Shown here piece by piece: positions 7,716 to 56,233 of a stretch of DNA of 64,000 nucleotides. This DNA is from Cytobacillus oceanisediminis 2691 (lineage in GTDB: Bacteria > Bacillota > Bacilli > Bacillales > Cytobacillaceae). Positions within the stretch are counted from its first letter, which is position 1. Each line of letters opens with the position of its first letter. The position numbers and the translations under genes are program-made. Below the pieces are notes generated by a model. The model did no database searches. It saw only the letters and a list, made by a program, of their open reading frames with translations, and was not told where the DNA came from. The DNA is taken from positions 159,942-223,941 of the forward strand of contig NZ_VEEP01000008.1 of NCBI RefSeq assembly GCF_007678455.1, written 5' to 3'.

Positions 7716-8176
7716 ACTTCGGACAGCTTTTCGGTTTTTTCTCTTAAACCTGTCCGAACTCAGGGCTACTTCGGACAACTTTTTGGGTTTTCCTCTCAAA
7801 CCTGTCCGAACTCGGAGCTACTTCGGACAGCTTTTTGGCTTTTTCTCGCAAACCTGTCCGAACTCTGGACTACTTCGGACAGCTTTTCTGGTTTTCCTCT
7901 TAAACCTGTCCGAACTCTGGACTACTTCGGACAGCTTTTCTGGTTTTCCTCTTAAACCTGTCCGAACTCTGGACTACTTCGGACAGCTTTTCAGATTTTC
8001 CTCGCAAACCTGTCCAAACTCGGGGCTACTTCGGACAGCTTTTCAGATTTTCCTCGCAAACCTGTCCGAACTCGAGACTACTTCGGACAGCTTTTCATCT
8101 TCTTCCCCCAAACCTGTCCGAACTCCGGCCTGATTCTGACAACTTTTCTGAATTCCCCATGGAACCTGTCCGAACA
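7716..8176. repeat. 52-bp tandem array 1 (about 9 units)
   Basis: Units begin with ACTTCGGACAG at 7716, 7768, 7820, 7872, 7924, 7976, 8028, 8080 and a degenerate 8132, a spacing of exactly 52 bp each time. Each unit contains CCTGTCCGAA and TTCGGACAG, which form a 9-bp inverted repeat around an 11-nt variable centre. The part between (CTTTTCTGGTTTTCCTC-type) is pyrimidine-rich. Because 52 is not a multiple of 3, any open frame across it changes phase each unit, so it is not coding. It fills the space between the converging nos operon and the YbaK gene. Confidence 0.95.
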
Positions 8177-8196
8177 GTCACATGGTCTGGTCACGA

Positions 8197-8685
8197 TTAG
8201 TCTTTTTGGGCCGTTACCAAATTGGCATATTTGCCTTCCGTTGCCTGAATCAGCTGATACGGTTCCAACTCAATCTGGAATCCTATTTTCCCAGCACTGA
8301 CGATGATGGTTTCAATTTGCTTCGCGCTCTCATTTAAAAACGTTGGATAGTTCTTTTTCATGCCAATCGGTGAGCAGCCGCCGCGGATATAACCGGTGAA
8401 TTTCTGGATGTCCTTGACCGGAAGCATTTCCACTTTCTTCTCGCCAGCTTCCTTTGCCGCCTTTTTTAAGTCCAGCTCGGCTTCAACCGGAATGACAAAG
8501 ACGTATAAATTCTTACTTGCCCCTACAGCCACAAGCGTCTTGTAGACCTGTGCTGCATCGCGGCCGATTTTGCCAGCAACAGTCACACCGTCAATTTTCC
8601 CATCATTTGAGTCATAAGAAAGAATCTCATACGGCACCTTCTGCGTATCGAGAATCCGCATCGCATTCGTTTTAACCTTAGCCAT
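8197..8685 (-). CDS. YbaK/EbsC-family Cys-tRNA deacylase
   Basis: The 162-residue protein matches the YbaK family, which hydrolyses Cys-tRNA(Pro) formed by misacylation. Family features are the N-terminal MAKVKTNAMRILD, the active-site Lys region QVYKTLVA, and GYIRGGCSPIGMKK, which contains the conserved GGxSP-type loop with Gly-Cys-Ser-Pro. ATG 8685 is the start, preceded by GGGAGG; a TTG 15 bp upstream overlaps that site. It is a single gene converging on the nos operon. Confidence 0.9.
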   Translation of the reverse strand: MAKVKTNAMRILDTQKVPYEILSYDSNDGKIDGVTVAGKIGRDAAQVYKTLVAVGASKNLYVFVIPVEAELDLKKAAKEAGEKKVEMLPVKDIQKFTGYIRGGCSPIGMKKNYPTFLNESAKQIETIIVSAGKIGFQIELEPYQLIQATEGKYANLVTAQKD

Positions 8686-8754
8686 CCTGGTCCCTCCCAA
8701 ACTGAGGTATTTAGGTTCATTTTACCTTATACTTCCAGTCGGGCACAATGAGCT

Positions 8755-10089
8755 TTAACGCTTGAGACTCTTTAGGCTGTCGTGAACATTCACGGCCTTC
8801 CTGCCGATAGAAAAATACGTCAGTCCAGCTGCTTCTGCCTGGTCGAGGCCATAGCAATTCCGGCCGTCAAAAATGATTGGCTGCCGCATCAATAATGGAA
8901 ACCGCGTTAATTCATACTCCGTAATTTGCGGCCATTCGGTCATGATGAAAACCGCATCCGCTCCTTTGATGGCAGTGTCAGCATTTTCAGCATAATAAAC
9001 CCCGCTGCCGAATAGGTGGGCGGCATTGCTCAATGCAGCCGGGTCATAGACAGAGATATCTGCCTGTTCGTCCAGCAGCCTGGCAACCAGCTCAATGGCG
9101 GGTGCCTCTCGGATGTCATCGGTATGCGGCTTGAACGCAAGGCCCAGCACGGCCACCCTTTTTCCCTGAAAGGTCCCAAACAGCTCCTTCGCTTTATAAA
9201 AAAGCTGCTGTTTCTGCCTGCTGTTCACCTCGATGACCGACCGCAGGATTTTAAAATCATAATCATAGTACTCCGTCAGTTTTTCCAGCGCCTTCGTATC
9301 CTTCGGGAAACAGGATCCGCCATAGCCAATCCCCGCGTTTAAAAAATGGCTGCCGATCCTGTGGTCCATGCCCATGCCCTTTGCCACATCCTCAATATTG
9401 GCACCCGTATGTTCACATAAATTCGCGATTTCATTGATAAAACTGATTTTCGTCGCCAGGAACGCATTGGAGGCATACTTGATGAGCTCCGCACTGCGGA
9501 CATCGGTCTGTATAACCGGCCTGGCAAATGGTTCATACAGCTTTGCCACCGCGCGGCCAGCCCCATGATCATCTGCTCCGATGACAATCCGGTCCGCGTG
9601 GAAGGTATCAAGGATACCCGAGCCCTCGCGGAGGAACTCAGGATTTGAAACGACGGACACCCGCAATTCACTTGGTATGATCGCCTTCAACTTTTGCCTG
9701 ACCCATTCATTGGTCCCAACAGGCACCGTACTTTTAATGACAATGACCCCATCCCTGTCCAAGCTTTTGCCAATCGCGGCGATCGCGGCATCCAGATATT
9801 CCAGGTTCGCCGACCCGTCTTCATTTTCAGGCGTTCCGACAGCGATGAAAATATAATCAGCCTTCCTGCAGGCGGTTCTTGAATCATTTGTAAAATAAAG
9901 CCTTCTCTCCGCAAGATTCCTTCTCAGCATCTCCTCAAGACCGGGCTCATAAATCGGGCACTTCCCTTCAGAAAGGGCAGTGATTTTACGTTCATCTATA
10001 TCAAAACAAGTGACATTGTAGCCCATTTCGGTAAAACAAACACCGGTGACAAGGCCAACATAGCCTGTCCCAAAAACTGCGATTTCCAT
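8755..10089 (-). CDS. ugd: UDP-glucose 6-dehydrogenase
   Basis: The 444-residue enzyme oxidises UDP-glucose to UDP-glucuronate with two NAD+. The Rossmann motif GTGYVGLVTG begins at residue 7. The catalytic cysteine is in GYGGSCFPKDTKAL near residue 260. The C-terminal UDP-binding domain begins around residue 315 (RVAVLGLAFKPHTDDIREAP). It belongs to the TuaD/YwqF group but stands alone here, without teichuronic acid or capsule genes alongside. Its start lies 70 bp beyond a normal intergenic promoter region. Confidence 0.95.
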   Translation of the reverse strand: MEIAVFGTGYVGLVTGVCFTEMGYNVTCFDIDERKITALSEGKCPIYEPGLEEMLRRNLAERRLYFTNDSRTACRKADYIFIAVGTPENEDGSANLEYLDAAIAAIGKSLDRDGVIVIKSTVPVGTNEWVRQKLKAIIPSELRVSVVSNPEFLREGSGILDTFHADRIVIGADDHGAGRAVAKLYEPFARPVIQTDVRSAELIKYASNAFLATKISFINEIANLCEHTGANIEDVAKGMGMDHRIGSHFLNAGIGYGGSCFPKDTKALEKLTEYYDYDFKILRSVIEVNSRQKQQLFYKAKELFGTFQGKRVAVLGLAFKPHTDDIREAPAIELVARLLDEQADISVYDPAALSNAAHLFGSGVYYAENADTAIKGADAVFIMTEWPQITEYELTRFPLLMRQPIIFDGRNCYGLDQAEAAGLTYFSIGRKAVNVHDSLKSLKR

Positions 10090-10270
10090 ATTGGCCTCCG
10101 TTATTTTTTATTCTTTATTTTATCATGCTGCACCCGTAATCCTGGCCAATTCGCTCAATTTGGTAAAAACTTGTCTATCCATATTTCTAGGGGGTAAAAG
10201 GAAAAATAGCATGATTCTCACTAAAACAGGAAAAATTAAAGACTATGAAGACTTTTAAGGAGGATTGTTG

Positions 10271-11806
10271 ATGAACGATTATACTTCAAAGCTGCCTCGT
10301 TTCCCTGAACCTTACTGGCGCAAAACAGCTGAACTGCCTTCTTTCCCGAAACTGCAGGAGGACCTGAATACAGACGTCGCGATTATTGGAGGCGGAATCA
10401 CAGGCTTGACCTCTGCCTACCTGCTGGCGAAAGCTGGTGCGAAAGTGGCCGTAATTGAAGCTGGCAGTATCTTAAACGGCACAACCGGGCATACAACCGC
10501 AAAAGTGACCGCACAGCACGGGTTAATTTATGACGAGCTCATCAGCCACTTTGGTGAGGATCACGCCCGCCTTTATTATCAGGCCAATTTTGACGCAATG
10601 CAATTTGTTAAAAATCTGGTGAAAGAACAGCAGATCGATTGCGATTTCACAGAAGAGGATGCCTATTTATTTACCAATTCCGATAAGGAAATGGAAAAGC
10701 TGCTTAAGGAATTCAAGGCTTATGAAAAGCTGGGTGTCGCAGGAAGTGAGTATGTATCAGAATTACCTATTCCTGTTGAGGCGATGGCAGCCGTGGTCAT
10801 GAGGAACCAGGCCCAGTTCCACCCGCTGAAATTTTTGAAACATCTGGCGGAGCGTTTTACAGAAATGGGCGGCCAAATTTATGAAAATACAACCGCAGTC
10901 GATATGGTGGAGGGCTCTGAGCCTGTCGTTACGACAAGGGACGGACATAAGGTGCACTGCAATCAGATGATCATCAGCACCCACTTCCCATTTTACGATC
11001 TAAAAGGGTTCTATTTTTCAAGGATGCAGGTCCATCGTTCCTATGTGCTTGCCGTTAAAACTGAAAAAGAATTCCCGGGCGGCATGTACATCAATGCCGA
11101 GACACCGTCACGATCCCTGCGCTATACAGACTGGAATGGCGAAAAACTGGTGCTGTTCGGCGGAGACAGCCATATCACAGGACAGGATGATAATACGCAT
11201 CAGTATTATGAAGCCCTTGAGGCGTTCGCTGCCCAGACGTTCGGCGTAAAGGAAATCCCTTTCCGCTGGAGCGCACAGGACCCGACCACACTTGATAAAA
11301 TACCTTTCGTCGGAAAATACTCATCAAGCACGGATAACATCTTTGTGGCCACAGGATACCGGAAATGGGGAATGAGCAACGGTATCAATGCGGCGCTGCT
11401 CATGTCCGATCTTGTCCTAAGGAGAGACAATCCGTATGTGGATGTGTTCGAACCGCAAAGATTCCATGCAAAACCGGATGTAGCGACATTCGTTGCTGAC
11501 AATGCCACTGTCGCAAAGGAACTGGTTAAAGGGAAACTGGAGCGTCCATCAACCGATCCCGAAAGCCTTGGCCACGACGAAGGCGCCGCCATAACAGTCA
11601 ACGGCAAACGGGCAGGAGCCTATCGTGACGAAAACGGCCAGCTGCACGTCGTAGATACTACCTGTACCCATATGGGCTGCGAGCTAAAATGGAACAACGG
11701 CGATCGCACCTGGGATTGCCCATGCCACGGCTCACGCTTCTCCTATAAAGGAGATGTCATTGATGGGCCTGCCGAACTGCCACTGGAAAAAGTCGATCTG
11801 GAATAA
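10271..11806 (+). CDS. FAD-dependent oxidoreductase with C-terminal Rieske domain (YhfW-like)
   Basis: The 511-residue protein is a fusion. An N-terminal DadA-type FAD domain has the dinucleotide motif VAIIGGGITGLTSAYLLAK near residue 35. A C-terminal Rieske [2Fe-2S] domain has CTHMGC and CPCHGS as the two ligand pairs (about residues 455-490). B. subtilis YhfW has the same architecture; its substrate is unknown. ATG 10271 follows AAGGAGG with a 7-bp spacer, so two upstream TTG codons are not used. A strong terminator follows. It probably acts in the cytoplasm as there is no signal peptide. Confidence 0.88.
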   Translation: MNDYTSKLPRFPEPYWRKTAELPSFPKLQEDLNTDVAIIGGGITGLTSAYLLAKAGAKVAVIEAGSILNGTTGHTTAKVTAQHGLIYDELISHFGEDHARLYYQANFDAMQFVKNLVKEQQIDCDFTEEDAYLFTNSDKEMEKLLKEFKAYEKLGVAGSEYVSELPIPVEAMAAVVMRNQAQFHPLKFLKHLAERFTEMGGQIYENTTAVDMVEGSEPVVTTRDGHKVHCNQMIISTHFPFYDLKGFYFSRMQVHRSYVLAVKTEKEFPGGMYINAETPSRSLRYTDWNGEKLVLFGGDSHITGQDDNTHQYYEALEAFAAQTFGVKEIPFRWSAQDPTTLDKIPFVGKYSSSTDNIFVATGYRKWGMSNGINAALLMSDLVLRRDNPYVDVFEPQRFHAKPDVATFVADNATVAKELVKGKLERPSTDPESLGHDEGAAITVNGKRAGAYRDENGQLHVVDTTCTHMGCELKWNNGDRTWDCPCHGSRFSYKGDVIDGPAELPLEKVDLE

Positions 11807-11810
11807 AACG

Positions 11811-11850
11811 AAGCCGCCATTCACATGTTTGAGTGGCGGCTTTCTTTTTG
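11811..11850 (+). terminator. Terminator after the Rieske oxidoreductase
   Basis: AAGCCGCCA pairs with TGGCGGCTT around a 14-nt loop and is followed by TCTTTTTG. It starts 5 bp past the stop codon. Confidence 0.9.
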
Positions 11851-11874
11851 TTTTGTCCAGCAGGGAACTTTCCC

Positions 11875-12124
11875 CGGCCGGGAATATAGTGGTCTCACCC
11901 GGGAATAAATTGGTTCCAACCCGAATCTTCCTCCAAACAGGGAGTGTCTTGCTCTAGAATGGGATATCTTGCGTCCAACTGGAGATATCCCGTCACAACT
12001 GGAGATATCCCGTCACAACTGGAGATATCCTTCCCACAACTGGAGATATTCTCCCACAACTGGAGATATCCTGCTCACGACTGGAGATATCTTCCCCTCA
12101 ACTGGAGATATCCTCCCTTCCAAC
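11875..12124. repeat. 20-21-bp tandem array (GGAGATATCC type)
   Basis: The core AACTGGAGATATCC recurs with starts of GGAGATAT at 11981, 12001, 12021, 12042, 12062, 12083 and 12104. The spacing is 20 or 21 bp, with a weaker copy at 11961. Further left, more diverged copies (CCGGGAATATAG, CCGGGAATAAAT) continue the same rhythm. Between cores is a variable C-rich stretch. The core contains the near-palindrome GGATATCC. It lies between two converging genes, after the terminator. Confidence 0.9.
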
Positions 12125-12191
12125 CTGTAATTTCTTCGCCCAACCGGGACAGATTACTTTCACAAGGATGAAATAACCTTATAACAGCTAA

Positions 12192-13091
12192 TTATTCCTT
12201 TTCCGCTAAAAGTGTCTTATGGATCCAGATGCTGGCCTGCATGCCGTCTCCCATCGCGATTGTTGTTTGCTCGGAATGGGCTACAAGGTCACCTGCTGCC
12301 CAAACGTTTTCGACATTGGTCATCTTGGTCCTTGGGTCCACTAATACATGCTTGTTTTTATGAAGGTCGACGCCAAGCTGTTGCGCGAGCTGCGATTTTA
12401 CTTCATTTCCTCCAAAGGCCATGAAGCCGCGTTCCGACGTCAGCTTCTCACCATTTGCAAGCATAATCCCCCTGAAATCCGGACCATCCGCCAGCACCTT
12501 TTCAATTGGCCCTTCAACATACTTAATTCCCTTTTTCTTCATGGCGGACATTATATCCTCGGCCACTTCTTTGTTTTCATGATTCACATACGTGAGTTTA
12601 TCAGTGAAATAATTCAGGGTCAGTGCCATGTTCGCACCAGGATTCCCCGACCCCATTACGATTGTCGACTTGTCTTTCACTTCATGTCCATCACAATCCG
12701 GACAGATATACACACTGATTCCCAAAGTAGGCATCAGCTCTGGGAAAGGGGGAATCCGGTCCATGACTCCTGTGGCAAGGAGCAATGTCTTCGCTTCGTA
12801 AGTATCTCCACTCTCCGCTTTGACTTCAAAACCAGCCCCTGTTTTTTTTGCAGCCTCAGCTTTTCCGATCACGAACTCCACGCCATACTGAGCAGCCTGT
12901 TTTCGGCCGATTTCCCTTAACTGTGGACCGCTTACTCCATCTGGGTAGCCAAGAATATTATGATAACTTTGGCATAATGCGGACCTTCCATCTCCTGCAT
13001 CAAGCACCATTGTTTTATGATTGTAACGTCCGAGTTGAATCGCCGCCTGCAGTCCGGCAATCCCCCCTCCAACTATAAGGCAATCGTACAT
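12192..13091 (-). CDS. TrxR-like NAD(P)/FAD-dependent disulfide oxidoreductase
   Basis: The 299-residue protein has the thioredoxin-reductase fold: FAD motif CLIVGGGIAGLQAAIQLGR at residue 4, the redox pair CPDC in YICPDCDGHE near residue 135, an NADPH motif GSGNPGANMAL, and the C-terminal FAD motif NVWAAGDL. It is a low-molecular-weight pyridine nucleotide-disulfide oxidoreductase, but the second motif GxGNPG departs from the classical GGGxSA of TrxB, so it may use a different partner. No operon partner is adjacent on the same strand. Confidence 0.85.
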   Translation of the reverse strand: MYDCLIVGGGIAGLQAAIQLGRYNHKTMVLDAGDGRSALCQSYHNILGYPDGVSGPQLREIGRKQAAQYGVEFVIGKAEAAKKTGAGFEVKAESGDTYEAKTLLLATGVMDRIPPFPELMPTLGISVYICPDCDGHEVKDKSTIVMGSGNPGANMALTLNYFTDKLTYVNHENKEVAEDIMSAMKKKGIKYVEGPIEKVLADGPDFRGIMLANGEKLTSERGFMAFGGNEVKSQLAQQLGVDLHKNKHVLVDPRTKMTNVENVWAAGDLVAHSEQTTIAMGDGMQASIWIHKTLLAEKE

Positions 13092-13225
13092 ACTACTACA
13101 CCGTCCTTTTTAAAAATTCCCATAGTAGCATATTTCCCTGTTAAAGAGCGGATAATCCAACAATTACTTTCTGAATGTTTTTACTAATACTAGTTATGAC
13201 GAAACCAACAAAATGGCTCTTTTAA

Positions 13226-13257
13226 AAAACCCAGCCGCATAGCTGCGACTGGGTTTT
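13226..13257 (-). terminator. Terminator downstream of beta-phosphoglucomutase
   Basis: AAAACCCAG pairs with CTGGGTTTT, with a second GCA/TGC pairing inside. On the minus strand it follows the pgmB stop by 6 bp and is followed by a T-rich tract. Confidence 0.85.
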
Positions 13258-13263
13258 GGAGTG

Positions 13264-13932
13264 TTAACTATTATAAACTTCTACGATTTTCTCAAATGAA
13301 AGCTTAGAAGTGCTGGTATAGACAATATCAGCATTTTCAAAGCTTTCCTTAGGACCGACAGCAACTGCATACATTCCGGCAGCTTTGATGGCCTGTACGC
13401 CAGCTGCTGCATCCTCGACACCGATGCAGGCTTCAGGCTCAACGCCTAGCATTTCGGCAGCACGCAGGAAGACTTCCGGATGCGGCTTGCCGTTTACGAC
13501 TGTTTTTGCGTCAACGATGATATCAAATTCAGATTTCATCCCGAGCGACTCCATTACGGTGAACGCGTTCTTGCTTGCTGACGCAAGGCCTAGTTTTAGC
13601 CCATTATCTTTGATGTCCCTGATCAATTCCTTGATCGCCGGCAACAGGTCAACAGGAGTGATGTTCTGGATCAATGTCAGGTAGTGCTCATTTTTCTTCT
13701 CAGCCAATGCTTCTTTTTCATCAACTGAAAAATCCCCCATCCGGCCGCCAAGCTCAAGAATCTTTTCGAGAGAATCCATCCGGGAAACACCCTTCAGCTC
13801 CTCGTTGTCCTCACGGGTAAAAGTAATTCCCAAATCCTCAGCCAGCGCCTTCCACGCTAAAAAGTGGTATTCCGCTGTATCCGTAATGACCCCATCAAGG
13901 TCAAAAATAAAAGCTTTTAGTGGTCTAGTCAT
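13264..13932 (-). CDS. pgmB: Beta-phosphoglucomutase
   Basis: The 222-residue HAD-superfamily enzyme interconverts beta-glucose 1-phosphate and glucose 6-phosphate. The nucleophile and acid/base aspartates are in FIFDLDGVITDTAEYH, the cap region follows, and motif III/IV is GVEDAAAGVQAIKAAG. ATG 13932 follows AAAGGAG at 8 bp; the upstream GTG is not preferred. It lies downstream of maltose phosphorylase on the same strand, which produces its substrate, but the two are separated by a 52-bp array. Confidence 0.93.
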   Translation of the reverse strand: MTRPLKAFIFDLDGVITDTAEYHFLAWKALAEDLGITFTREDNEELKGVSRMDSLEKILELGGRMGDFSVDEKEALAEKKNEHYLTLIQNITPVDLLPAIKELIRDIKDNGLKLGLASASKNAFTVMESLGMKSEFDIIVDAKTVVNGKPHPEVFLRAAEMLGVEPEACIGVEDAAAGVQAIKAAGMYAVAVGPKESFENADIVYTSTSKLSFEKIVEVYNS

Positions 13933-13984
13933 TGTCAAAACTCCTTTCACGAGTCATCCATGCAGTCTCAGAAGCAGATTCTGA

Positions 13985-14425
13985 GAATCATTGGACATTT
14001 CATTCCCACTCAAACACGCAAATGTCTATATAATTGCTTTTCTTGACTTCTCTTCGCCATTCACTATCCAAAATGTCTATTAAGACTCGGTTCTTGGACA
14101 TTTCAACGCTTTCTACTCTCCAAAATGTCCATTAAAGCACCTTTCTTGGACATTTCAACAGCTTCTGCTCTTCAAAATGTCTATTAAACCGCTTTTCTTG
14201 GACATTTCATCCCTTCACACTCTCCAAAATGTCCATTAAACCACTTTTCTTGGACATTTCAACCCTTCACACTCTCCAAAATGTCCATTAAACCGCTTTT
14301 CTTGGACATTTCAACCCTTCACACTCTCCAAAATGTCCATTAAAGCACCTTTCTTGGACATTTCTACACCTTCCGCTCTTCAAAATGTCTATTAAATCCA
14401 CCCTTTTTGGCCATTTCACTGCAAT
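13985..14425. repeat. 52-bp tandem array 4 (about 9 units) between malP and pgmB
   Basis: TTGGACATTTC cores start near 13993, 14045 (degenerate), 14096, 14148, 14200, 14252, 14304, 14356 and 14409, so the spacing is 52 bp with single-base slips at the ends. Each unit holds AAATGTCCA and TGGACATTT as a 9-bp inverted repeat. TGTC and the following GACA start 23 bp apart (for example 14126 and 14149), the same geometry as arrays 1, 2 and 3. It separates two same-strand genes of one pathway. Confidence 0.93.
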
Positions 14426-14491
14426 TCACACAGTAAAATCTTTCCCCAATGAGAGAGACCTTCAGGCTTGCCTAAAGATCTCTTCATCAAC

Positions 14492-16783: not shown

Positions 16784-16807
16784 AGCTTTATCTCCCTTTT
16801 AGAAGTT

Positions 16808-16823
16808 GTACAAACGTTTGCAC
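16808..16823. promoter_or_regulatory. LacI/MalR-type operator upstream of maltose phosphorylase
   Basis: GTACAAACGTTTGCAC is a near-perfect dyad centred on CG with a perfect 10-bp CAAACGTTTG core, typical of LacI-family operators. It lies 25 bp upstream of the malP start, where repressor binding would block transcription. It also resembles a CcpA cre site but matches that consensus only in part. Confidence 0.7.
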
Positions 16824-17384: not shown

Positions 17385-17392
17385 TTAAGATG

Positions 17393-17424: not shown

Positions 17425-17427
17425 CTT

Positions 17428-22870: not shown

Positions 22871-22990
22871 TTTTATTGGCGGTTTTCACAATTTTATTGG
22901 CGATTTTTTAGTTTTATTGGCGAAAAAACAAATTTATTGGCGAATTCACCCTACTTTTTGACGAAAATCAGATTTTATTGGCGAACTGGA
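22871..22990. repeat. 20-21-bp tandem array (TTTATTGGCG type)
   Basis: TTTATTGGCG recurs with ATTGG starting at 22875, 22896, 22916, 22936 and 22977, and a degenerate copy between the last two. The spacing is 20 or 21 bp. The linker is A/T-rich. It lies downstream of the HAD gene and upstream of the response-regulator gene. The rest of 22607-23110 holds only the regulator's promoter area and a short T-rich stretch. Confidence 0.85.
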
Positions 22991-29046: not shown

Positions 29047-29718
29047 ATTTTGACAACTTTGATGTTGTGCACCTCAAACCTGTCTGAATTCAGGGCTTTT
29101 TTTGACAGCTTTTCTGCTTTGCGCCTCGAACCTGTCTGAATTCCGAGCTTTTTTTGACAGCTTTTGGGCCTTCCGCCTCAAACTTGTCTAAATCCAGTTG
29201 TTTTTTTGACAGCTTTTCTGCTCTGCGCCTCAAACCTGTCTAAATTCAGAGCTTTTTTAGACAGCTTTTAGGCCTTGCGCCTCAAACCTGTCTAAATCCA
29301 GTTGTTTTTTTGACAGCTTTTCTGCTCTGCACCTCGAACCTGTCAGGATCCAGGGCTTTTTTTGACAGCTTTTAGGCCTTGCGCCTCAAACCTGCCCAAA
29401 TCCAGAGCTTTTTTTGACAGCTTTTCTGCTCTGCTCCTCGAACCTGTCAGAATCCAGGGCTTTTTTTGACAGCTTTTCTGCTCTGCGCCTCAAACCTGTC
29501 TGAATTCCGAGCTTTTTTTGACAGCTTTTGGGCCTTCCGCCTCAAACTTGTCTAAATCCAGTTGTTTTTTTGACAGCTTTTCTGCTCTGCGCCTCAAACC
29601 TGCCCAAATCCAGAGCTTTTTTTGACAGCTTTTCTGCTCTGCTCCTCGAACCTGTCAGAATCCAGGACTTTTTTTAACAGCTTTTCTGCTCTGCGCCTCA
29701 AACCTGTCTGAATTCCCC
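29047..29718. repeat. 52-bp tandem array 2 (13 units)
   Basis: The GACAGCTTTT core (GACAAC in unit 1, AACAGC in the last) starts at 29052 and then every 52 bp to 29676, thirteen units with no slip. CTGTC and GACAG form the half-sites, and TGTC to GACA start distance is 23 bp (29081 to 29104). The stem is shorter than in array 1 because the base after TGTC is often T opposite T. Linkers alternate between two versions, TCTGCTCTGC and GGGCCTTCC/AGGCCTTGC, which suggests duplication of blocks of two units. It fills the space between converging genes. Confidence 0.95.
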
Positions 29719-39293: not shown

Positions 39294-39881
39294 TCACTTA
39301 TTCATTTTGGCAAGGAAATCTCCTAACAGATCATCCAGATCTTCTTCTGTCTCTTCCTGGTCCGGTGTTTCAGTTTGTTGGGCTGATTCCCATTCAAATG
39401 AATCCAAATCATCGTCCAAGTCGTCGATTTCAGCACCAGAGGCCGTTTCCTGTGTTACCGGTGATTCCTCTTCTAATGCTGTCGGGTGCATGTTCATATC
39501 CTTTTCCTGCAGGTAAAGAGCCTCATCTATTTCAGTAGACTTGCTGTTCAATGAGGCCAGCAGTGCGGTTGCCCTCAAGGGATCCGTCAACAGATGATAG
39601 ACGATATTGCCCAGCAAAGCTTCTGAATGCTCATGCTTGATCCAATCCCGCTGCGATTTGCTGAGACTCCGAGGGAGAGGGATTGTAATCGTTTCGCGTT
39701 CCCTTGAATAAGAATTCCCCACACCTTTGACGACAAATTCGGCAATCTTGCTCGAAAAGTTCCTTCGCTCTGTTTCCTTTAAGTTCTGGAGATGCCTTAA
39801 GATATGGTCTGGTGTATCAGAGGGAACACGAAATGACAATGCTTGTCCTCTCTTAATCTCATTTGGGTTGGTTTTTTTCAT
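39294..39881 (-). CDS. ParR-like partner of the ParM filament protein
   Basis: The 195-residue protein has a basic N-terminal part (about residues 10-115; SFRVPSDTPDHILRHLQNLK, FSSKIAEFVVKGVG, ITIPLPRSLSKSQRDWIKHE) that could be a DNA-binding ribbon-helix-helix pair. A strongly acidic C-terminal tail (from about 125; DDLDDDLDSFEWE, EETEEDLDDLLGDFLAKM) follows. In ParMRC systems ParR binds parC with its N-terminus and the end of the ParM filament with its C-terminus. The assignment rests on position, 14 bp after parM, and on this charge layout. Confidence 0.7.
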   Translation of the reverse strand: MKKTNPNEIKRGQALSFRVPSDTPDHILRHLQNLKETERRNFSSKIAEFVVKGVGNSYSRERETITIPLPRSLSKSQRDWIKHEHSEALLGNIVYHLLTDPLRATALLASLNSKSTEIDEALYLQEKDMNMHPTALEEESPVTQETASGAEIDDLDDDLDSFEWESAQQTETPDQEETEEDLDDLLGDFLAKMNK

Positions 39882-39895
39882 AGGATCACCTTATT

Positions 39896-41071
39896 TTAGC
39901 TTTTAACAGGTTCAGAAGCGGCTTTGCTGCTCTTCTCTGATTTTTTCACAAAGTCCATGATGAGCTTATAATAAGCGTTCGCCATCATCCAGATGCTTTC
40001 TTTTTCATCCTCGAAAAATTCAATGTTATAGCCATCAAGATTATTGTTCAATGTTTTGATATATTCTTTTAAAACTGTTGCTCCTCCGCCAACAAAATAG
40101 CAGATTTCAGTCTGGGAATTCTTTGCCCACACATTGCGAAGCAGGCGGTATTGCTTTTTAGCCAGTTCAAGCAGGATACGGTCTGTGATGTCATGAACGC
40201 TTGTACGGCTTCCTTTGACCATGATATGGTTCCGGTCATTCTTGCGCGTGATGATCTCTACAACGTCCGTACGGCTGTCTAACTCGACGCCATGCTTGCT
40301 GCGGATTTCTTCCCTGATTTGTTCGAGTGCTTCAGACACACCAAGGTTGAAGCCCTGTGCCTTGTCATCATCGACATTGCGATTCTTGATGACAGCGATA
40401 TCTGTTGATAATCCGCCGATATCCTGGATCAGGATTCTTCTATCAATCAAGTCCTTATTGATGATTTTCAGGCTGTTATCCATTACTAGATTGATATATG
40501 CTGCGAAGCCTTCAGGATAAACCTTCACTTCATCGAATTTGATATTTACTTTCAGTCCCTGGTATTTCGGGGTAACAAGGAATTCAACCTGGTGAACGGA
40601 TCCTACCAGCTTGGAACGGTAGCCAGCATCTTTTCCTTCCTTGACCTCGCGAAGCGGAAGGCCGGTACCAAGCGTATAATTCGCATCAATGACATTCTTG
40701 CTTTTCGGGAAAAGCTTGGCATTGTCTTCATTGACAGCATCCAATGCTAGAGTAGCGAAAAGCATAATCAAGGTCTGATCTTCCTCCGACTTGCTGCTGC
40801 CAGGATCAAGTTCGGTAGCATTGTCACTTTTAGTAGCCAGGTTTCCGACACGATAGATTGCGTTATTTTCTTTCAGGGCAGGGGAGTGGACACGAATATG
40901 GATTCCATCAAGCGGATCCTTCGCATCAAGCTCCTCGATGCCGATTACAGGACGGTCTTCAGTGTCCCTTGCCACGATGTTAGGGATATTCAGTTCGTTA
41001 TCAAATTCTCCAAAAATAGCTTTAATAGAATCGTTACCAACATCAACTGCTGCAATTCTGGATTTCGTCAT
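39896..41071 (-). CDS. parM: ParM/StbA-family actin-like ATPase
   Basis: The 391-residue protein has actin-fold motifs: phosphate 1 IAAVDVGNDSIKAIFGE at the start, phosphate 2 ILIQDIGGLSTDIAVI near residue 220, and adenosine motif YFVGGGATVL near residue 325. It should polymerise to push DNA molecules apart. It resembles the ParM proteins found in Bacillus plasmids and chromosomes. ATG 41071 follows AAAGGAATGATAAG; the ATG 9 bp upstream is too close to that site. It forms an operon with the ParR-like gene and the iterons lie just upstream. ParM loci are usually on plasmids, so its place here is unusual. Confidence 0.85.
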   Translation of the reverse strand: MTKSRIAAVDVGNDSIKAIFGEFDNELNIPNIVARDTEDRPVIGIEELDAKDPLDGIHIRVHSPALKENNAIYRVGNLATKSDNATELDPGSSKSEEDQTLIMLFATLALDAVNEDNAKLFPKSKNVIDANYTLGTGLPLREVKEGKDAGYRSKLVGSVHQVEFLVTPKYQGLKVNIKFDEVKVYPEGFAAYINLVMDNSLKIINKDLIDRRILIQDIGGLSTDIAVIKNRNVDDDKAQGFNLGVSEALEQIREEIRSKHGVELDSRTDVVEIITRKNDRNHIMVKGSRTSVHDITDRILLELAKKQYRLLRNVWAKNSQTEICYFVGGGATVLKEYIKTLNNNLDGYNIEFFEDEKESIWMMANAYYKLIMDFVKKSEKSSKAASEPVKS

Positions 41072-45028: not shown

Positions 45029-45032
45029 GGTA

Positions 45033-46305: not shown

Positions 46306-46306
46306 A

Positions 46307-46341: not shown

Positions 46342-46348
46342 AATTTAA

Positions 46349-50388: not shown

Positions 50389-50411
50389 TACTAGCAAGAA
50401 TCATAACAAGT

Positions 50412-50445
50412 AGAAAACCGCATCTGGAATAAGGTGCGGTTTTCT
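50412..50445. terminator. Terminator between symporter and amine-oxidation operon
   Basis: AGAAAACCGCA pairs with TGCGGTTTTCT around a 12-nt loop, 23 bp past the symporter stop codon and 5 bp before the convergent reductase stop. Confidence 0.92.
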
Positions 50446-50450
50446 AGTTT

Positions 50451-51410
50451 CTATAAATCTAATACTAAATGCCCTTCCCCCCGGGAAACAAAGCATAGAA
50501 TCGACTGATTTGTACGTTGTTGTTCTTCAGTGAGGAAGGAATCGAAATGGGCGACTTCCCCCTCTGCTACTTTCACTTCGCATGTCCCACAGCCGCCAAC
50601 CTTGCAGGAAAAAGGCAGATTGATTCCATTTTCACGGATCACATCCAGCAATGAACGATCCTTTGGAATTTCCAGCTGCATTCCGCTATTTTGCAGAGTC
50701 ACGGTAAATGGCCTGGCTTCTCTATTCTCGGGTGGAGCAAATCGCTCGAAATGAATATTGAAAGAAGGATATCCATAGCTTTTTGCCGTTTCGGTGAATT
50801 CTTCAATCATGTTTTCAGGCCCGCAAAAATATACATGGGTCCCAATCCGGTGATCTTGAAGAGAAGCTGGAGATAATCTATTAGAATTCTCATCCTCTGA
50901 AAAATAAAAATAGCATTCCTCTGGATAACGTTCCCTTAACGTATTGTAAAAAGCGCATTGTTCCTTTGTTTTCGCTCCATAATGCAGCTCGAAAGATTGG
51001 TTCTTTTCGGCGAGTTCAGCCATCATTGATAAAAAAGGCGTGATCCCAATGCCGGCTGCATAAAAAACATGGTGTTTAGCTTGAAAACTCATTGGAAAAT
51101 GGTTTTTAGGATAGCTGATCTTAACAATATCCCCTTCAATGACACTATGATGCCAGTAAGCGGAGCCGCCATTTGAAGGCTCGGCCAGACGTACGGCGAT
51201 CTCCATGACACCTGGCTCTGAAAGGTTAAAAACTGAATAATGTCTTTCCATTATGCCTGAAGGCTGCGGCAAATAAGTGATTATATGGGAGCCGCCGCCA
51301 AAGAGCGGGAGCTTGACGCCGTTCACTGCTTCCAGGGTGAACCTTTTAATGGTTTCCGTTTCCATTTTTATAGATTTCACTCGTACTTGTATTGTATTGC
51401 CCTGCTGCAA
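50451..51410 (-). CDS. PDR/VanB-type oxidoreductase (FMN/FAD and 2Fe-2S)
   Basis: The 319-residue reductase has a flavin domain (about residues 10-105; ERHYSVFNLSEPG) and an NAD-binding domain (about 110-225; YAAGIGITPFLSMMAELA). A C-terminal plant-type [2Fe-2S] ferredoxin domain has Cys residues in FSCKVGGCGTCEVKV and SILCFVS. This is the phthalate-dioxygenase-reductase type, which passes electrons from NADH to an oxygenase. It is the last gene of a three-gene operon whose other members resemble dimethylamine monooxygenase subunits, so it most likely supplies that enzyme. Confidence 0.85.
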   Translation of the reverse strand: MQQGNTIQVRVKSIKMETETIKRFTLEAVNGVKLPLFGGGSHIITYLPQPSGIMERHYSVFNLSEPGVMEIAVRLAEPSNGGSAYWHHSVIEGDIVKISYPKNHFPMSFQAKHHVFYAAGIGITPFLSMMAELAEKNQSFELHYGAKTKEQCAFYNTLRERYPEECYFYFSEDENSNRLSPASLQDHRIGTHVYFCGPENMIEEFTETAKSYGYPSFNIHFERFAPPENREARPFTVTLQNSGMQLEIPKDRSLLDVIRENGINLPFSCKVGGCGTCEVKVAEGEVAHFDSFLTEEQQRTNQSILCFVSRGEGHLVLDL

Positions 51411-51426
51411 TCTCAGTCCCCCTGTC

Positions 51427-51882
51427 TCATTTGATCGTTACATATCCCAAGTAAGCATCCAAACGGCGGGAATAATGATCCGAAACCTCGAGTTCCTGCC
51501 CACAGAACCTGCATATGACAATCTGGTTTTCCCAGGCTTCATTCTCGCCATGACAAGTACAGCATATTAACTTTTTCGATAAAAAAACCTTTGTTGCAGT
51601 CTGTATTTCCTGTTCGGAAAAACCTGTTTCAAATGCCAGCTCCTTTACCATTTTCACAAATTCCGCCGAACCGGATATGTATAGGTAGGTCCCCATTTTT
51701 TGCGTGCAGAACCAGGTTTTCAGCATGGGTTCCTGTCCCTCAGCGAAAATATGAAAATCAAAAGGGATTTTTTCAGACAATGCCTGTTGTAAAAGGTCGT
51801 AAAAATCCCCGGCACCCCCCGAATCCGTACAAAACAAGAATTTTCTTTTCCCACTCACTATTTTAAAGCTGCTTTCACTCAT
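51427..51882 (-). CDS. DmmA-like subunit of an amine monooxygenase
   Basis: The 151-residue protein resembles the DmmA family (dimethylamine monooxygenase subunit). It has a central GTYLYISGSAEFVKMVKELA region and a C-terminal four-Cys site (CCTCHGE and CRFCGQE), probably a zinc knuckle. It has no signal peptide. It overlaps the end of the upstream DUF3445 gene by 4 bp, and the reductase follows after 16 bp. The family assignment is from memory of domain layout and context. Confidence 0.7.
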   Translation of the reverse strand: MSESSFKIVSGKRKFLFCTDSGGAGDFYDLLQQALSEKIPFDFHIFAEGQEPMLKTWFCTQKMGTYLYISGSAEFVKMVKELAFETGFSEQEIQTATKVFLSKKLICCTCHGENEAWENQIVICRFCGQELEVSDHYSRRLDAYLGYVTIK

Positions 51883-52829
51883 CTCTTTTTCAGTTCCACC
51901 TCCAGATATTCAAGGACCGAGTTCCGGTACAAGGAAATACCTTTATATTCTGCGATGAATTCAGGAAGTTCCTTCAAGATTGCCGAAAATTGCTTTAGCC
52001 ATGGGGTATGCTGGATGAGTGATTCAAGGGGCAGCATATGTGTATGGATGGTAAATAAAATCCCATTGCTTTTTGGCAGCCGGAAAAGTTTCTGTACTTC
52101 TACCCGCAAGTGGACCAGTTCACCTGCATTTTCTTTTGTCACATTTTTTCGGGCCTTGCCCCATTCAGCGAATGTTTCAAGCGAGGTATCCAGCCGGTCC
52201 CCTGCCATAAGTGACCAATTTTTCCTCCACCATGGACTGCCTGCCTCGATTCTCATTAAAAACTGGAGAATGCGCTCATCAAGTGATCCATACTTGAACC
52301 CGGGAATTGTCGTATGGATTTCTTTGAACGACATTCCAGCATCAAAATACAACGACCAATTGGCTGGAAAGCAGAGCTGACCTGCATCCAGAAATAAATC
52401 CCCGTCCCGCTGCATCATCAGGATCAAATCTTCCTGCACATGCCGGCCGACAAAATCCAGCGGTTCAACGTCCAGTGTTGCCTGATTTCCAAATATGAAG
52501 GAATGATTCTCACCTGTTAACTGGTTAGTGAAAATCCAATGGTCATTGTTTGCAACAAGCTGGTAGTTCTCAGGATAGAAACTGGCCAGCTGGTGCAGGA
52601 TTAAATCCAACACTTCCCACTGGGCATCCAATGTATGTGGCATGGAGTGGTAACAGCGTTTGGGGTGATTTATCAGCAATTCTCTCTTCAGCTTGATGTC
52701 CTCTAAATAAGATTTTGTCACTTCGATGGCAATTGGTGGATTTAATGGTACCGCATTGTTAGAATATCTATATACATCCTGTTCACCAAAAGGATAAGGA
52801 AAAGGGTCCTTATTCTCAATAGAGACCAT
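51879..52829 (-). CDS. DUF3445 heme-dependent oxidative N-demethylase-like protein
   Basis: The 316-residue protein has features of DUF3445/HDOD (LICFPANWSLYF-type segment, here LCFPANWSLYFDAGMSFKEIH; FGNQATLDVEPLDFVGRHVQEDLILM). In methylotrophs this is the catalytic haem subunit that demethylates dimethylamine. It is the first gene of an operon of three. Start ATG 52829 follows GGAGGAATTAG on the minus strand. Substrate specificity (dimethylamine or another secondary amine) cannot be settled from sequence. Confidence 0.78.
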   Translation of the reverse strand: MVSIENKDPFPYPFGEQDVYRYSNNAVPLNPPIAIEVTKSYLEDIKLKRELLINHPKRCYHSMPHTLDAQWEVLDLILHQLASFYPENYQLVANNDHWIFTNQLTGENHSFIFGNQATLDVEPLDFVGRHVQEDLILMMQRDGDLFLDAGQLCFPANWSLYFDAGMSFKEIHTTIPGFKYGSLDERILQFLMRIEAGSPWWRKNWSLMAGDRLDTSLETFAEWGKARKNVTKENAGELVHLRVEVQKLFRLPKSNGILFTIHTHMLPLESLIQHTPWLKQFSAILKELPEFIAEYKGISLYRNSVLEYLEVELKKR

Positions 52830-52995
52830 CTAATTCCTCCTTTTCAGAATTTTTCATCTACTTATTACTATACAGAAGTTCAATGAGGAATTCATTACAC
52901 AAGGAAAAGTTGGACAAACTAATCTAGTGCAATGCTGTATAAATCTATCTTTTTTTTGAAATAATTATTAAGAACTAAAAACCGGTGTTTATCAC

Positions 52996-53049
52996 TTGAC
53001 ACTTAATAAGTTTTATATAATAATCGTTACTGTATTAGAATTATTCTAG
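52996..53049 (+). promoter_or_regulatory. ahpCF promoter with PerR box
   Basis: A perfect -35 TTGACA (52996-53001) is followed after 17 bp by AATAAT (53019-53024). Eleven bases further is TTAGAAT-T-ATTCTAG (53035-53049), a 7-1-7 dyad close to the PerR consensus TTATAATNATTATAA. Binding there would block the start of transcription, as at ahpC in B. subtilis. The PerR assignment is inferred from the match and gene identity. Confidence 0.72.
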
Positions 53050-53127
53050 TTTACCGAATAGTTAACTGAATTCATTCAGGAAAACTATTTCAAAAATAAT
53101 TCAACCATTTTAAGGAGGAAATTAATC

Positions 53128-53691
53128 ATGGCATTAATCGGTACTCAAGTTTTACCATTCACAGCAAACGCATTCCACAACGGAGAATTCATCACTGTTT
53201 CTGAAGAAAACTTCAAAGGCAAGTGGAGCGTAGTTGTATTCTACCCAGCAGACTTCACATTCGTATGCCCTACAGAGCTTGAAGACATGCAAAACGAATA
53301 TGCTACATTAAAAGAAATGGGAGCAGAAGTATATTCTGTATCAACTGATACACACTTCACTCACAAAGCATGGCACGACCACTCTGAAGCAATCAGCAAA
53401 ATCGAGTACATCATGATTGGCGATCCATCTCAAAGACTTACTCGCAACTTCGATGTATTGAATGAAGAAGATGGTCTTGCAGAGCGCGGAACTTTCATCA
53501 TCGATCCAGACGGCGTTATCCAGACTGTTGAAATCAACGCAGGCGGAATCGGCCGTGACGCTAGCCAGGTAGTTAACAAGCTGAAAGCAGCACAATATGT
53601 ACGCAACAACCCAGGCGAAGTTTGCCCTGCTAAATGGAAAGAAGGCGGCGAAACTCTTAAGCCAAGCCTTGATCTTGTAGGAAAGATTTAA
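53128..53691 (+). CDS. ahpC: Alkyl hydroperoxide reductase subunit C (peroxiredoxin)
   Basis: The 187-residue 2-Cys peroxiredoxin has the peroxidatic Cys in [17 protein letters not shown] (near residue 47) and the resolving Cys in [11 protein letters not shown] (near residue 166). It reduces hydrogen peroxide and organic peroxides and is recycled by AhpF. The start follows TAAGGAGGAAATTAATC. A 13-bp gap separates it from ahpF. Confidence 0.97.
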
Positions 53692-53704
53692 GGGGAACAC
53701 TCCC

Positions 53705-55234
53705 ATGTTATTAGATGCAGAAATTAAGGCACAATTAGCCCAATATCTTCAAATGATGGAGGGCGATGTGCTGCTTAAAGTTAGCGCAGGATCGGATGAT
53801 GTATCACGAGACATGCTGGCTTTAGTCGATGAATTGGCAACAATGTCATCCCATATTAAAGTGGAGCATGCCGAATTAAATAGAACACCTAGCTTTAGTG
53901 TCAACCGTGTCGGTGAAGACACTGGAGTGACTTTTGCGGGCATTCCTTTAGGACATGAATTCACTTCATTAGTCCTTGCCCTGCTCCAGGTCAGCGGCAG
54001 AGCGCCAAAAGTTGATCAGAAAGTCATTGACCAAATTAAAGCGATCAAGGACGAATATCGTTTTGAGACATATGTCAGCCTTAGCTGCCACAATTGCCCT
54101 GATGTAGTACAAGCCTTGAACGTGATGAGCACTTTGAATCCTGGCATTTCACATACCATGATTGATGGTGCAGCGTACAAGGAAGAAGTTGAAAGCAAGG
54201 ATATCATGGCCGTACCAACGGTATTCCTGAATGGCGAGCCATTCGGAAGCGGACGTATGTCCCTTGAGGAGATTCTTGCAAAATTGGGTTCTGGTCCAGA
54301 TGCTTCCGAATTGGCGGACAAAGATCCTTATGATGTCCTTGTTGTTGGCGGCGGACCAGCTGGTTCAAGTGCAGCCATCTATGCAGCGCGAAAAGGCATC
54401 CGTACAGGGATCGTTGCTGAGCGCTTCGGTGGCCAGGTAATGGATACTTTAGGCATCGAGAACTTCATCAGTGTCAAGCACACTGAAGGCCCTAAGCTTG
54501 TTGCCAGCCTTGAAGAGCATGTGAAAGAGTATGGCGTCGATATCATGAACCTTCAGCGTGCCACACGCCTGGAGAAAAAAGACCTTATCGAGCTGGAACT
54601 TGAAAATGGTGCAGTCCTGAAGAGTAAAACTGTCATCATTTCGACTGGTGCCCGCTGGCGCAATGTCAACGTACCAGGAGAAGCTGAATTCAAGAACAAA
54701 GGCGTTGCCTACTGCCCTCACTGTGATGGACCATTGTTCGAAGGAAAAGATGTAGCTGTCATCGGCGGAGGAAACTCTGGCGTTGAAGCAGCAATCGACC
54801 TTGCAGGTATCGTAAAGCATGTAACAGTGATCGAGTTCAATCCTGAACTCAAAGCTGATGCTGTTCTACAAGATCGCCTGCACAGCCTTCCAAACGTCAC
54901 AGTAGTGACAAACGCACAAACAAGCGAAATTACCGGAACTGACAAAGTGAACGGTATTACGTACATTGACCGTGCATCAGGCGAAGAACACCATGTTGAA
55001 TTACAAGGGGTATTCGTACAAATCGGTCTCGTACCAAACACAGAATGGCTCGGTGACACGCTTGAACGCACTCGCTTCGGTGAGATTGTCGTAGACAAGC
55101 AAGGTGCCACAGACCTGCCTGGCGTTTTCGCTGCTGGCGATTGCACGGACAGTGCATACAAACAAATCATCATTTCAATGGGATCAGGTGCAACCGCAGC
55201 ATTAGGTGCGTTTGATTACTTGATTCGTAACTAA
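53705..55234 (+). CDS. ahpF: Alkyl hydroperoxide reductase subunit F
   Basis: The 509-residue flavoprotein has an N-terminal double thioredoxin-like domain with CHNC ([14 protein letters not shown], near residue 128) and a TrxR-like domain. That domain has the FAD motif [19 protein letters not shown], the redox CPHC in [13 protein letters not shown] (near residue 340) and a second FAD motif FAAGDCTDS. It passes electrons from NADH to AhpC. A terminator hairpin begins 5 bp after the stop. Confidence 0.97.
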
Positions 55235-55238
55235 TAGG

Positions 55239-55283
55239 AAGCCGCTTTACTGCCTGGATTGATGGCAGTGGAGCGGTTTTTTT
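55239..55283 (+). terminator. Terminator of ahpCF
   Basis: AAGCCGCTTTACTGCC pairs with GGCAGTGGAGCGGTTT including G-T pairs, 9-nt loop, followed by TTTT. Confidence 0.85.
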
Positions 55284-55290
55284 GTGGGCT

Positions 55291-56233
55291 GACAGGTTTT
55301 CTTGACAGCTTTACGCTCGCCACCCGCAAACCTGTCTAAATACCGAGGGTTTCTTGACAACTTTACGCTCGCCACCTGCAAACCTGTCTAAATAACGAGG
55401 GTTTCTTGACAACTTTACGCTCTTCACCCACAAACCTGTCAAAATAACGACCGTTTCTTGACAGCTTTACTCTCTTCACCCACAAACCTGTCAAAATAAC
55501 GACGCTTTCTTGACAACTTTACTCTCTACACCTGCAAACCTGTCAAAATAACGAGGGTTTCTTGACAACTTTACGATCTTCACCCGCAAACCTGTCAAAA
55601 TAACGAGGGTTTCTTGACAACTTTACGATCTTCACCCGCAAACCTGTCAAAATAACGACGCTTTCTTGACAACTATCCGCTCATCACCCGCAAACCTGTC
55701 AAAATAACGAGGGTTTCTTGACAACTTTACTCTCTACACCTGCAAACCTGTCAAAATAACGAGGGTTTCTTGACAACTTTACTCTCTTCACCCGCAAACC
55801 TGGCAAAATAACGAGGGTTTCTTGACAACTTTACGCTCGCCACCCGCAAACCTGTCAAAATAACGACGGATTCTTGACAGCTTTCCGCTCATCAACTGCA
55901 AACCTGTCAAAATAACGAGGGTTTCTTGACAACTTTACGATCTTCACCCGCAAACCTGTCAAAATAACGACCGTTTCTTGACAGCTTTCCGCTCATCAAC
56001 TGCAAACCTGTCAAAATAACGAGGGTTTCTTGACAACTTTACTCTCTTCACCCGCAAACCTGTCAAAATAACGACCGTTTCTTGACAGCTTTACTCTCTT
56101 CACCCGCAAACCTGTCAAGATAACGACGGATTCTTGACAGCTTTCCGCTCATCAACTGCAAACCTGTCAAGATAACGACGCTTTCTTGACAACTTTCCGC
56201 CCATCACCCACAAACCTGTCAAAATAACGAACG
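55291..56233. repeat. 52-bp tandem array 3 (18 units)
   Basis: TTCTTGACA(A/G)CT cores start (GACA) at 55304, 55356, 55408 and every 52 bp to 56188, eighteen units without a slip. Each unit has CCTGTCAAAATAACGA, an ACGAGGGTTTC-type centre and TTGACA; TGTC and GACA starts are 23 bp apart. TGTCAA and TTGACA form a 6-bp stem. The linker TTTACGCTCTTCACCCGCAAA is variable in three short places, and variants such as TCATCAACTGCAAA recur in the order of neighbouring units, as expected for block duplication. It lies between converging ahpF and mqo. Confidence 0.96.

What the first reader, a model, noticed from the sequence alone, without database searches (positions are those of the whole stretch)
7716..56233. 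Four unrelated-looking intergenic arrays share one hidden plan: 52-bp period with TGTC/GACA half-sites 23 bp apart
Arrays at 7716-8176, 13985-14425, 29047-29718 and 55291-56233 differ in most bases but agree exactly in geometry. The unit is 52 bp in all four (array 4 with single-base slips). TGTC is followed by GACA at +23 in each: 7751/7774, 14126/14149, 29081/29104 and 55333/55356. Together they contain about 49 units. Independent arrays converging on both numbers is unlikely by chance, so they are either one ancient repeat family that diverged array by array or sites under a common constraint. I know of no described Bacillus element with this plan.
Basis: seen in the sequence. Interest (0 to 1): 0.85.

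Follow-up and report, generated by a model that had tools for sequence, protein, structure and literature searches.

The report
Nuclease genes paired with repeat arrays
The four repeat blocks belong to a known but unexplained class of bacterial repeats, and comparison of many genomes points to their missing partner: a family of nuclease-like proteins, usually encoded right beside an array, whose DNA-reading end varies together with the array's sequence.

Summary
Observation confirmed: four arrays, period 52, with TGTC-N19-GACA (39 strict pairs); the genome holds 523 tandem pairs, control 0. The repeat class is known (52-nt Bacillus repeats, PMC8161180), without a partner protein. TGTC/GACA is not universal: 9 of 27 52-bp arrays in 844 kb have no strict pair, yet several keep a 27-bp inverted repeat.

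New: a chromosomal protein family, NERD nuclease domain (PF08378) + zinc ribbon + predicted winged helix, is encoded beside such arrays. In the window's genus 98 of 103 genes are followed by one within 354 bp; the 5 others stop at contig ends. Of 80 named loci, 67 (within 400 bp); control genes 32 of 759. Most paralogue clades have their own half-site type; one has period 53. Identity of the zinc ribbon/winged helix predicts half-site similarity (rho 0.46, 0 of 2000 permutations). Gene family and TGTC arrays co-occur over 249 genomes (46/2/52/149; p=4e-20). Spacers are purine-rich on the leading strand (16 of 17 arrays).

Best reading: array families are targets of cognate NERD proteins, whose intact active site may drive array turnover. 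Binding and cutting are inferred, not assayed.

The parts
7711..8175 (-). 52-bp array 1, class D half-site (TGTCCGAA/TTCGGACA), in a convergent gap after a hairpin and T run; the strand given is the purine-rich spacer strand. Proposed cognate gene: NERD clade II, G000:C111:330575-331483 (L177), outside the window
13985..14425 (-). 52-bp array 2, class B half-site (TGTCYATTAAA / TTCTTRGACA), between two minus-strand genes; strand given = purine-rich spacer strand. Proposed cognate gene: NERD clade I, G000:C332:408247-409140 (L351), outside the window
29048..29713 (-). 52-bp array 3, class A half-site (TGTCTRAATC / TTTTTTGACA), in a convergent gap after a hairpin and T run; strand given = purine-rich spacer strand; array in the orthologous gap of 17 of 20 congeneric genomes. 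Proposed cognate gene: NERD clade III, G000:C477:123042-123950 (L178), outside the window
55294..56230 (-). 52-bp array 4, class A half-site (TGTCAAAATAA / TTTCTTGACA), in a convergent gap after a hairpin and T run; strand given = purine-rich spacer strand; array beside the orthologous gene in 8 of 19 congeneric genomes. Proposed cognate gene as for array 3

Best explanation
The arrays are the DNA target sites of a family of dedicated chromosomal proteins with a NERD (PD-(D/E)XK nuclease) domain, a four-cysteine zinc ribbon and a C-terminal tail predicted as a winged helix. One unit is a 27-bp inverted pair of about 10-bp half-sites plus a 25-bp spacer. Inferred: a dimer reads one unit with one winged helix per half-site, and the 52-bp period (five helical turns) puts successive dimers on one face of the DNA. 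Shown by comparison: nearly every gene of the family is followed by an array; different paralogues of a genome stand beside arrays with different half-sites; further arrays of such types lie in intergenic gaps around the chromosome; and the variable recognition-helix/wing residues go with the half-site. Inferred: the invariant nuclease site nicks or cuts array DNA or structures formed in it, perhaps when a fork passes, since the spacers are polar. Repair by unequal exchange would keep arrays homogeneous, variable in copy number and locked to the period, so that arrays last only while their protein does. By half-site likeness the four arrays of this window belong to three such systems (clades I, II and III), whose genes lie elsewhere in the genome. 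Whether the host profits (chromosome landmarks, fork handling) or the gene-array pair is a settled selfish element is open.
For: Adjacency: 98 of 103 genes in 20 genomes of the genus (21 searched; 2 partial genes not taken) are followed by an array within 354 bp, the 5 others having 59-143 bp of contig left; 48 of 50 loci have an array, 46 of them 1-162 bp after the stop codon and 2 upstream; 67 of 80 named loci within 400 bp downstream (at least 9 of the 80 repeat loci among the 50, and 23 of the 50 are among the 103); control genes 32 of 759. Co-occurrence over 249 genomes of the order: family (best E<1e-60) in 46 of 48 TGTC-array genomes and 52 of 201 others, Fisher 3.7e-20, relatedness not corrected; all 6 TGTC-pattern-negative genomes among the 30 best loci also have a TRF 52-bp array beside the gene. 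Number of clade I-III genes against TGTC pairs in 20 genomes: rho 0.80, p=2.4e-5. Code: clades II, III, VI and VII each show one recognisable half-site type with variants, clade V a period of 53 in 13 of 13 arrays; clade I shows three types, clade IV several. Across genera, ZnR-wHTH identity against half-site match rho 0.46 (0 of 2000 permutations), nuclease part 0.21 (9 of 2000); the signal is highest in residues 261-300, partial rho 0.43. In clade I all 24 positions without a shared residue between type-E and type-B proteins lie in residues 228-301 (alignment of the wing is unsure). Nuclease: E42, D74, K89, Q116 and four Cys invariant in 64 of 64, position 87 E or D; model pLDDT 93; PD-(D/E)XK neighbours at modest scores. 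Half-sites, not hairpins: conserved mismatches between arms, no G-T over A-C bias. Polarity.
Against: No binding or cleavage has been measured. Two array-positive genomes (G021, G095) showed no strong family member; in G021 palindromes 52 bp apart persist with poorly related spacers (identity 0.36 and 0.56), so something else may hold them there. A prediction noted before its test held only in part: class B sites are 0, 0 and 7 where no clade I gene was found (G011, G017, G018), but G001 (87% complete) has 36 without a found clade I gene, and B sites are not clearly commoner in genomes with B-type clade I (p=0.12), e.g. G013 with E-type has 81; class E sites are fewer in B-type genomes (p=0.023). 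G000 has class C arrays, but none of its 6 genes stands beside one. Clade IV does not keep one half-site. Six of 80 named loci have enough downstream DNA and no array within 400 bp downstream or upstream. Genus counts are of orthologues, so not independent.
Confidence: 0.72

Rival explanations
1. Same protein-array pairs, but architectural: the NERD proteins coat the arrays as chromosome landmarks that a replication- or segregation-linked machine reads in one direction; the nuclease fold is not used for cutting at the arrays. The paper's authors proposed a nucleoid-stabilising protein without naming one.
For: Period of five helical turns; spacers purine-rich on the leading strand in 16 of 17 arrays of known strand, GC skew 0.445 and AT skew 0.293 against 0.00-0.14 and about 0 at fourfold sites; in a complete chromosome the orientation switches between 2.26 and 2.58 Mb of 4.7 Mb, with 3 arrays against the rule among the 100 of 151 places listed; in a genome of another family arm asymmetry agrees with the sign of local GC skew in 13 of 13 fetched loci with unequal tallies, while one listed site that was not fetched (2419898) goes against its neighbour.
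Against: Catalytic residues invariant in 64 of 64 and 102 of 102 proteins, apart from E or D at position 87, unexpected for a pure scaffold. Arrays patchy within genera.
Confidence: 0.2
2. Transcribed repeats acting as small or hairpin RNA (the paper's alternative).
For: The paper reports transcription of 52-nt repeats in B. coagulans (PMC8161180). Arms are partly complementary.
Against: Mismatches between arms are conserved, e.g. class D position 9 unpaired in 4 of 4 arrays; G-T and A-C mismatches balanced, 15 arrays against 14; strand skew follows replication in 8 of 8 arrays in convergent gaps; no Rfam match at gathering score in the window.
Confidence: 0.04
3. Neutral satellites that gather after terminators; NERD genes lie beside arrays because arrays gather at some gene ends.
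For: Arrays lie in intergenic gaps, 0 of 27 in called genes; copy number at one gap varies from about 3 to 23.
Against: 32 of 759 control genes against 67 of 80 and 98 of 103; correlation of half-site with recognition helix and wing; clade-specific 53-bp period.
Confidence: 0.02

Closest known systems
52-nt tandem repeats of Bacillus (Subirana and Messeguer 2021, PMC8161180)
   Same: Same repeats: 51-53 nt, mostly non-coding, constant size with variable sequence, several families per genome; Table 1 consensus units from B. coagulans, litoralis, thermoamylovorans and alkalitelluris carry TGTC-N19-GACA.
   Different: The paper gives no unit anatomy, no replication polarity and no partner protein; [quoted passage not shown]
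REPIN-RAYT systems (PMC8049555, search listing only; features recalled)
   Same: Chromosomal gene with dispersed palindromic intergenic repeats that persist with the gene (recalled).
   Different: RAYT is a Y1/HUH transposase (recalled); here Pfam finds NERD. Here tandem arrays with fixed period and several paralogues with different half-sites per genome.
NERD domain proteins (PF08378)
   Same: The nuclease domain, E 4e-17 to 2e-18 in three proteins.
   Different: This subfamily adds zinc ribbon and predicted winged helix and is tied to 52-bp arrays; three searches found no paper that links NERD proteins to such arrays.
20-21-nt repeats of the same paper
   Same: Coexist here; period of two helical turns.
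   Different: Other sequence; not analysed for inverted half-sites. One such array lies 112 bp from a distant NERD-ZnR homologue.

Membership tests
52-nt Bacillus tandem repeats (PMC8161180) | period 51-53, at least four copies, constant size and variable sequence | tested here: met
52-nt Bacillus tandem repeats (PMC8161180) | not in coding sequence | tested here: met
   0 of 27 arrays in called genes; genes called by my own simple script
NERD (PF08378) proteins | Pfam match above gathering score | tested here: met
   63.1-67.7 bits against cut-off 22.1, 3 of 3 proteins scanned
PD-(D/E)XK nucleases | E ... D ... (E/D)xK ... Q active-site residues | tested here: met
   invariant in 64 of 64, position 87 E (61) or D (3)
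PD-(D/E)XK nucleases | fold | tested here: met
PD-(D/E)XK nucleases | measured cleavage | not testable with these tools
   needs bench work
REPIN-RAYT | repeat-flanked gene encodes a Y1/HUH transposase (recalled) | tested here: not met
   in three array-adjacent proteins NERD is the only family above its Pfam cut-off
CRISPR arrays | near-identical repeats separated by unrelated spacers | tested here: not met
   mean identity of internal spacers is at least 0.62 in 29 of 33 arrays
CRISPR arrays | cas genes beside the array | not tested
   no search for cas genes was made
Rfam RNA families | match at gathering score | tested here: not met
   5 matches at E<=1 in the window, all below their gathering scores, none in a 52-bp array
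Known anti-phage defence systems | full-length match to a defence protein | tested here: not met
   three proteins: weak partial matches to HEC-02B, MkoA, PglW and MAD6 (best 3.6e-6, far under its cut-off)

The most novel reading that the evidence does not exclude
A previously unrecognised kind of two-component genome system: families of site-specific NERD nucleases that not only read but write and maintain their own tandem target arrays. Several mutually specific copies would coexist in one genome, each with its own half-site code set by recognition helix and wing, and all oriented to the replication fork. New codes would arise by change of the DNA-binding tail, after which old arrays are left to decay.
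Probability: 0.4. Interest if true: 0.95.

Novelty: categorically new. Interest (0 to 1): 0.88.

Why it matters
The 52-nt repeats of Bacillaceae have been a described riddle: constant size, variable sequence, no known partner. A dedicated protein family beside the arrays makes the riddle testable at once. It gives natural experiments (many protein-array pairs with different half-sites, and genomes that lack one pair) and a specificity code for a zinc-ribbon/winged-helix tail on a nuclease that can be read by comparison. It also adds a strongly polar, replication-oriented feature dispersed over the chromosome. The repeats as such are known; the two-component system is undescribed as far as my searches reach (open-licence papers only).

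Tried and rejected
RNA hairpin reading: tested by arm mismatches and wobble bias, not supported; the fold-alignment tools were not used. Rfam: nothing at gathering score. Phage, provirus or plasmid origin: one tandem-pattern scan of viral contigs gave 19 hits, of which one (L072) is a real array; blastn of two arrays in plasmids and one of them in phages and tblastn of one family protein in both gave no match. A phage protein family of unknown function (phrog_21557) matches the NERD part weakly, best 9.1e-9. Simple mutational skew as cause of polarity: rejected for the spacer, since fourfold sites and other intergenic DNA are far less skewed; arrays beside clade V and VI genes do not show clear GC polarity. 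Isolated sites as a sign of autoregulation (G253) gave no regulator, but that reading showed a NERD gene between arrays. A solved structure of the whole protein: hmmsearch found only zinc ribbons of RNA polymerase subunits at E 0.34-0.95. The winged helix was not searched alone, so no statement on its nearest fold. Orthologous gaps without array 4 are mostly about 1 kb long with other sequence, so not clean empty sites. The link of 21-bp arrays to a distant NERD homologue rests on one case. In the 844 kb read, one further weak partial NERD hit (G3:248378-248650) has no array beside it.

Limits: the order-wide search scored at most 9 candidates per genome; palindrome calls give a bonus to GTC/GGC, which may also flavour; clades were assigned by best BLAST match to seven references, and the tree places two G018 genes nearer clade III and the G011 gene nearer clade VI; many G genomes are drafts in which arrays break contigs; half-site classes A-H are my labels; the replication origin was assumed at position 1 and in the reading (in G003 supported by gene direction and skew of 100-500 kb).
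Full report
OBSERVATION. Tandem Repeats Finder finds the four arrays with period 52: 7711-8175, 14062-14418, 29048-29713, 55294-56230, 46.5 copies. TGTC is followed by GACA at +23 in 39 places (8, 6, 9, 16). In the read parts of the own genome the distances 23, 29, 52 and their sums stand far above a flat background. Genome-wide the tandem pattern occurs 523 times, the backwards control 0 times. It occurs in 20 of 21 genomes of the genus and in 48 of 249 genomes and 25 of 103 genera of the order. The claimed slips of array 4 are not there.

KNOWN CLASS. These are the 52-nt repeats of Subirana and Messeguer (PMC8161180, whole text read; their 2020 paper was not held). The period is wider than the TGTC skeleton: of 27 52-bp arrays in 844 kb of two genomes, 9 have no strict TGTC/GACA pair, and several of these keep a 27-bp inverted repeat with other arms, such as GGTCACATAA and GGTCACCAATA.

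ANATOMY. A unit is a 27-bp inverted repeat with arms of about 10 bp, and a 25-bp spacer. The arms look like half-sites rather than a stem. Over 267 units in 39 arrays, some arm positions agree and others differ in a conserved way, and G-T mismatches are hardly commoner than A-C (0.082 against 0.070; 15 arrays against 14). Spacers are purine-rich on the leading strand: GC skew 0.445 and AT skew 0.293, against 0.103 and 0.004 in other intergenic DNA and 0.00-0.14 and about 0 at fourfold sites. This holds for 16 of 17 arrays of three or more units with known strand, the exception being C11:24206. In the complete G003 chromosome the oriented class A spacer lies on the plus strand from 0.18 to 2.26 Mb apart from two arrays, and on the minus strand from 2.58 Mb apart from one place, in the 100 of 151 places that were listed. 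In G253, of another family, arm asymmetry agrees with the sign of local GC skew in 13 of 13 fetched loci with unequal tallies; one listed site that was not fetched goes against its neighbour.

INHERITANCE. The gap of array 3 has an array in 17 of 20 genomes with the flanking gene (one of them a single unit before a contig end), with up to 23 copies, in the same orientation; array 4's gene has one beside it in 8 of 19. In G018, G019 and G011, which lack a clade III gene, the array 3 gap is 112, 148 and 259 bp and has no array. All 16 genomes with a clade III gene have one. G017, without a clade III gene found, keeps about 3 copies.

THE PARTNER. Reading genes beside arrays of other genera showed NERD-domain proteins in several of them. 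Five were aligned and sought in the same 249 genomes. A strong member (best E<1e-60) occurs in 46 of 48 TGTC-array genomes and in 52 of 201 others. Of 50 loci examined (the 30 best and 20 chosen paralogues), 48 have a 51-53-bp array, 46 of them 1-162 bp behind the stop codon and 2 upstream; of the two without, one lies at a contig end and one shows weak 52-bp periodicity. Of 80 named loci (the best 80 of 389), 67 have an array within 400 bp downstream; of the 13 others, 5 have under 180 bp of contig left, 2 have an array upstream, 6 have neither. Of control genes 32 of 759 have one. In the genus 103 of the 105 listed genes were taken, two partial ones left out: 98 are followed by an array, and the 5 without have 59-143 bp of contig left.

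THE CODE. A tree of the 103 proteins shows seven groups. Clades II, III, VI and VII each show one recognisable half-site type with variants; clade V has period 53 in 13 of 13 arrays; clade I holds three half-site types and clade IV several (clades there by best BLAST match). In clade I the type B proteins form a fully supported group, and all 24 positions without a shared residue between type E and type B lie in residues 228-301. Across genera (64 loci, 1967 pairs), identity of the zinc ribbon and winged helix predicts half-site match (rho 0.463, 0 of 2000 permutations), the nuclease part far less (0.208, 9 of 2000); the signal is highest in residues 261-300 and stays at partial rho 0.43.

TESTS THAT WENT AGAINST OR ONLY HALF WITH THE READING. 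A prediction written down before its test said that class B sites would be high where clade I is of type B and low elsewhere. Absence fitted (0, 0, 7 sites in G011, G017, G018), but the graded part did not (p=0.12; G013, of type E, has 81), and G001 has 36 sites without a found clade I gene. Class E sites were fewer in genomes with type B protein (p=0.023). G021 and G095 have arrays without a strong gene, and G021's palindromes persist with poorly related spacers. G000 has class C arrays without a class C neighbour among its six genes. The GC skew of arrays beside clade V and VI genes is weak.

MECHANISM. Shown by comparison: physical pairing, co-occurrence, co-variation of DNA-binding residues with half-sites, conserved catalytic residues, and polarity. 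Inferred: binding by dimers on one helical face, cutting or nicking at the arrays, and array turnover by repair. Unknown: profit for the host. For this window, array 1 (class D) goes with clade II, array 2 (class B) with clade I, and arrays 3 and 4 (class A) with clade III, by half-site likeness to the arrays beside these genes in G000.

VERDICT. The repeats are known; the two-component system is new as far as the searches go (searches found no paper that links NERD proteins and such arrays; only open-licence papers are held).

Noticed in passing
window 11963-12124; also 22871-22943: Arrays of period about 20-21, the other constant-size class of PMC8161180, in the same window.
   Followed up: partly
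G000:C466:39377-39467 and 39579-40577 (L021, L022): A distant NERD homologue with CxxC pairs (about 25% identical to the array-linked family) starts 112 bp from a 21-bp array: perhaps the 20-21-nt class has its own NERD partner.
   Followed up: partly
G253 arrays (e.g. L134, L143, L145): Higher-order repeats of 249 or 260 bp built from 52-bp units, often with one arm TGGC and the other TGTC.
   Followed up: no
L063 (G122) 2542-4463: NERD gene in two pieces around transposase genes that look IS3-like by eye, beside its array.
   Followed up: no
one-contig genomes G003, G005, G006, G008, G010: NERD genes of clades I, III, VI and VII lie on the lagging strand in 19 of 19 cases, clades II and V on the leading strand in 7 of 7, clade IV 3 lagging and 1 leading (origin assumed at position 1).
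   Followed up: partly
L072 (viral contig IMGVR_UViG_3300007759_000741): The only real 52-bp array among 19 viral-contig hits, with a class B-like half-site; perhaps host flank of a provirus.
   Followed up: no
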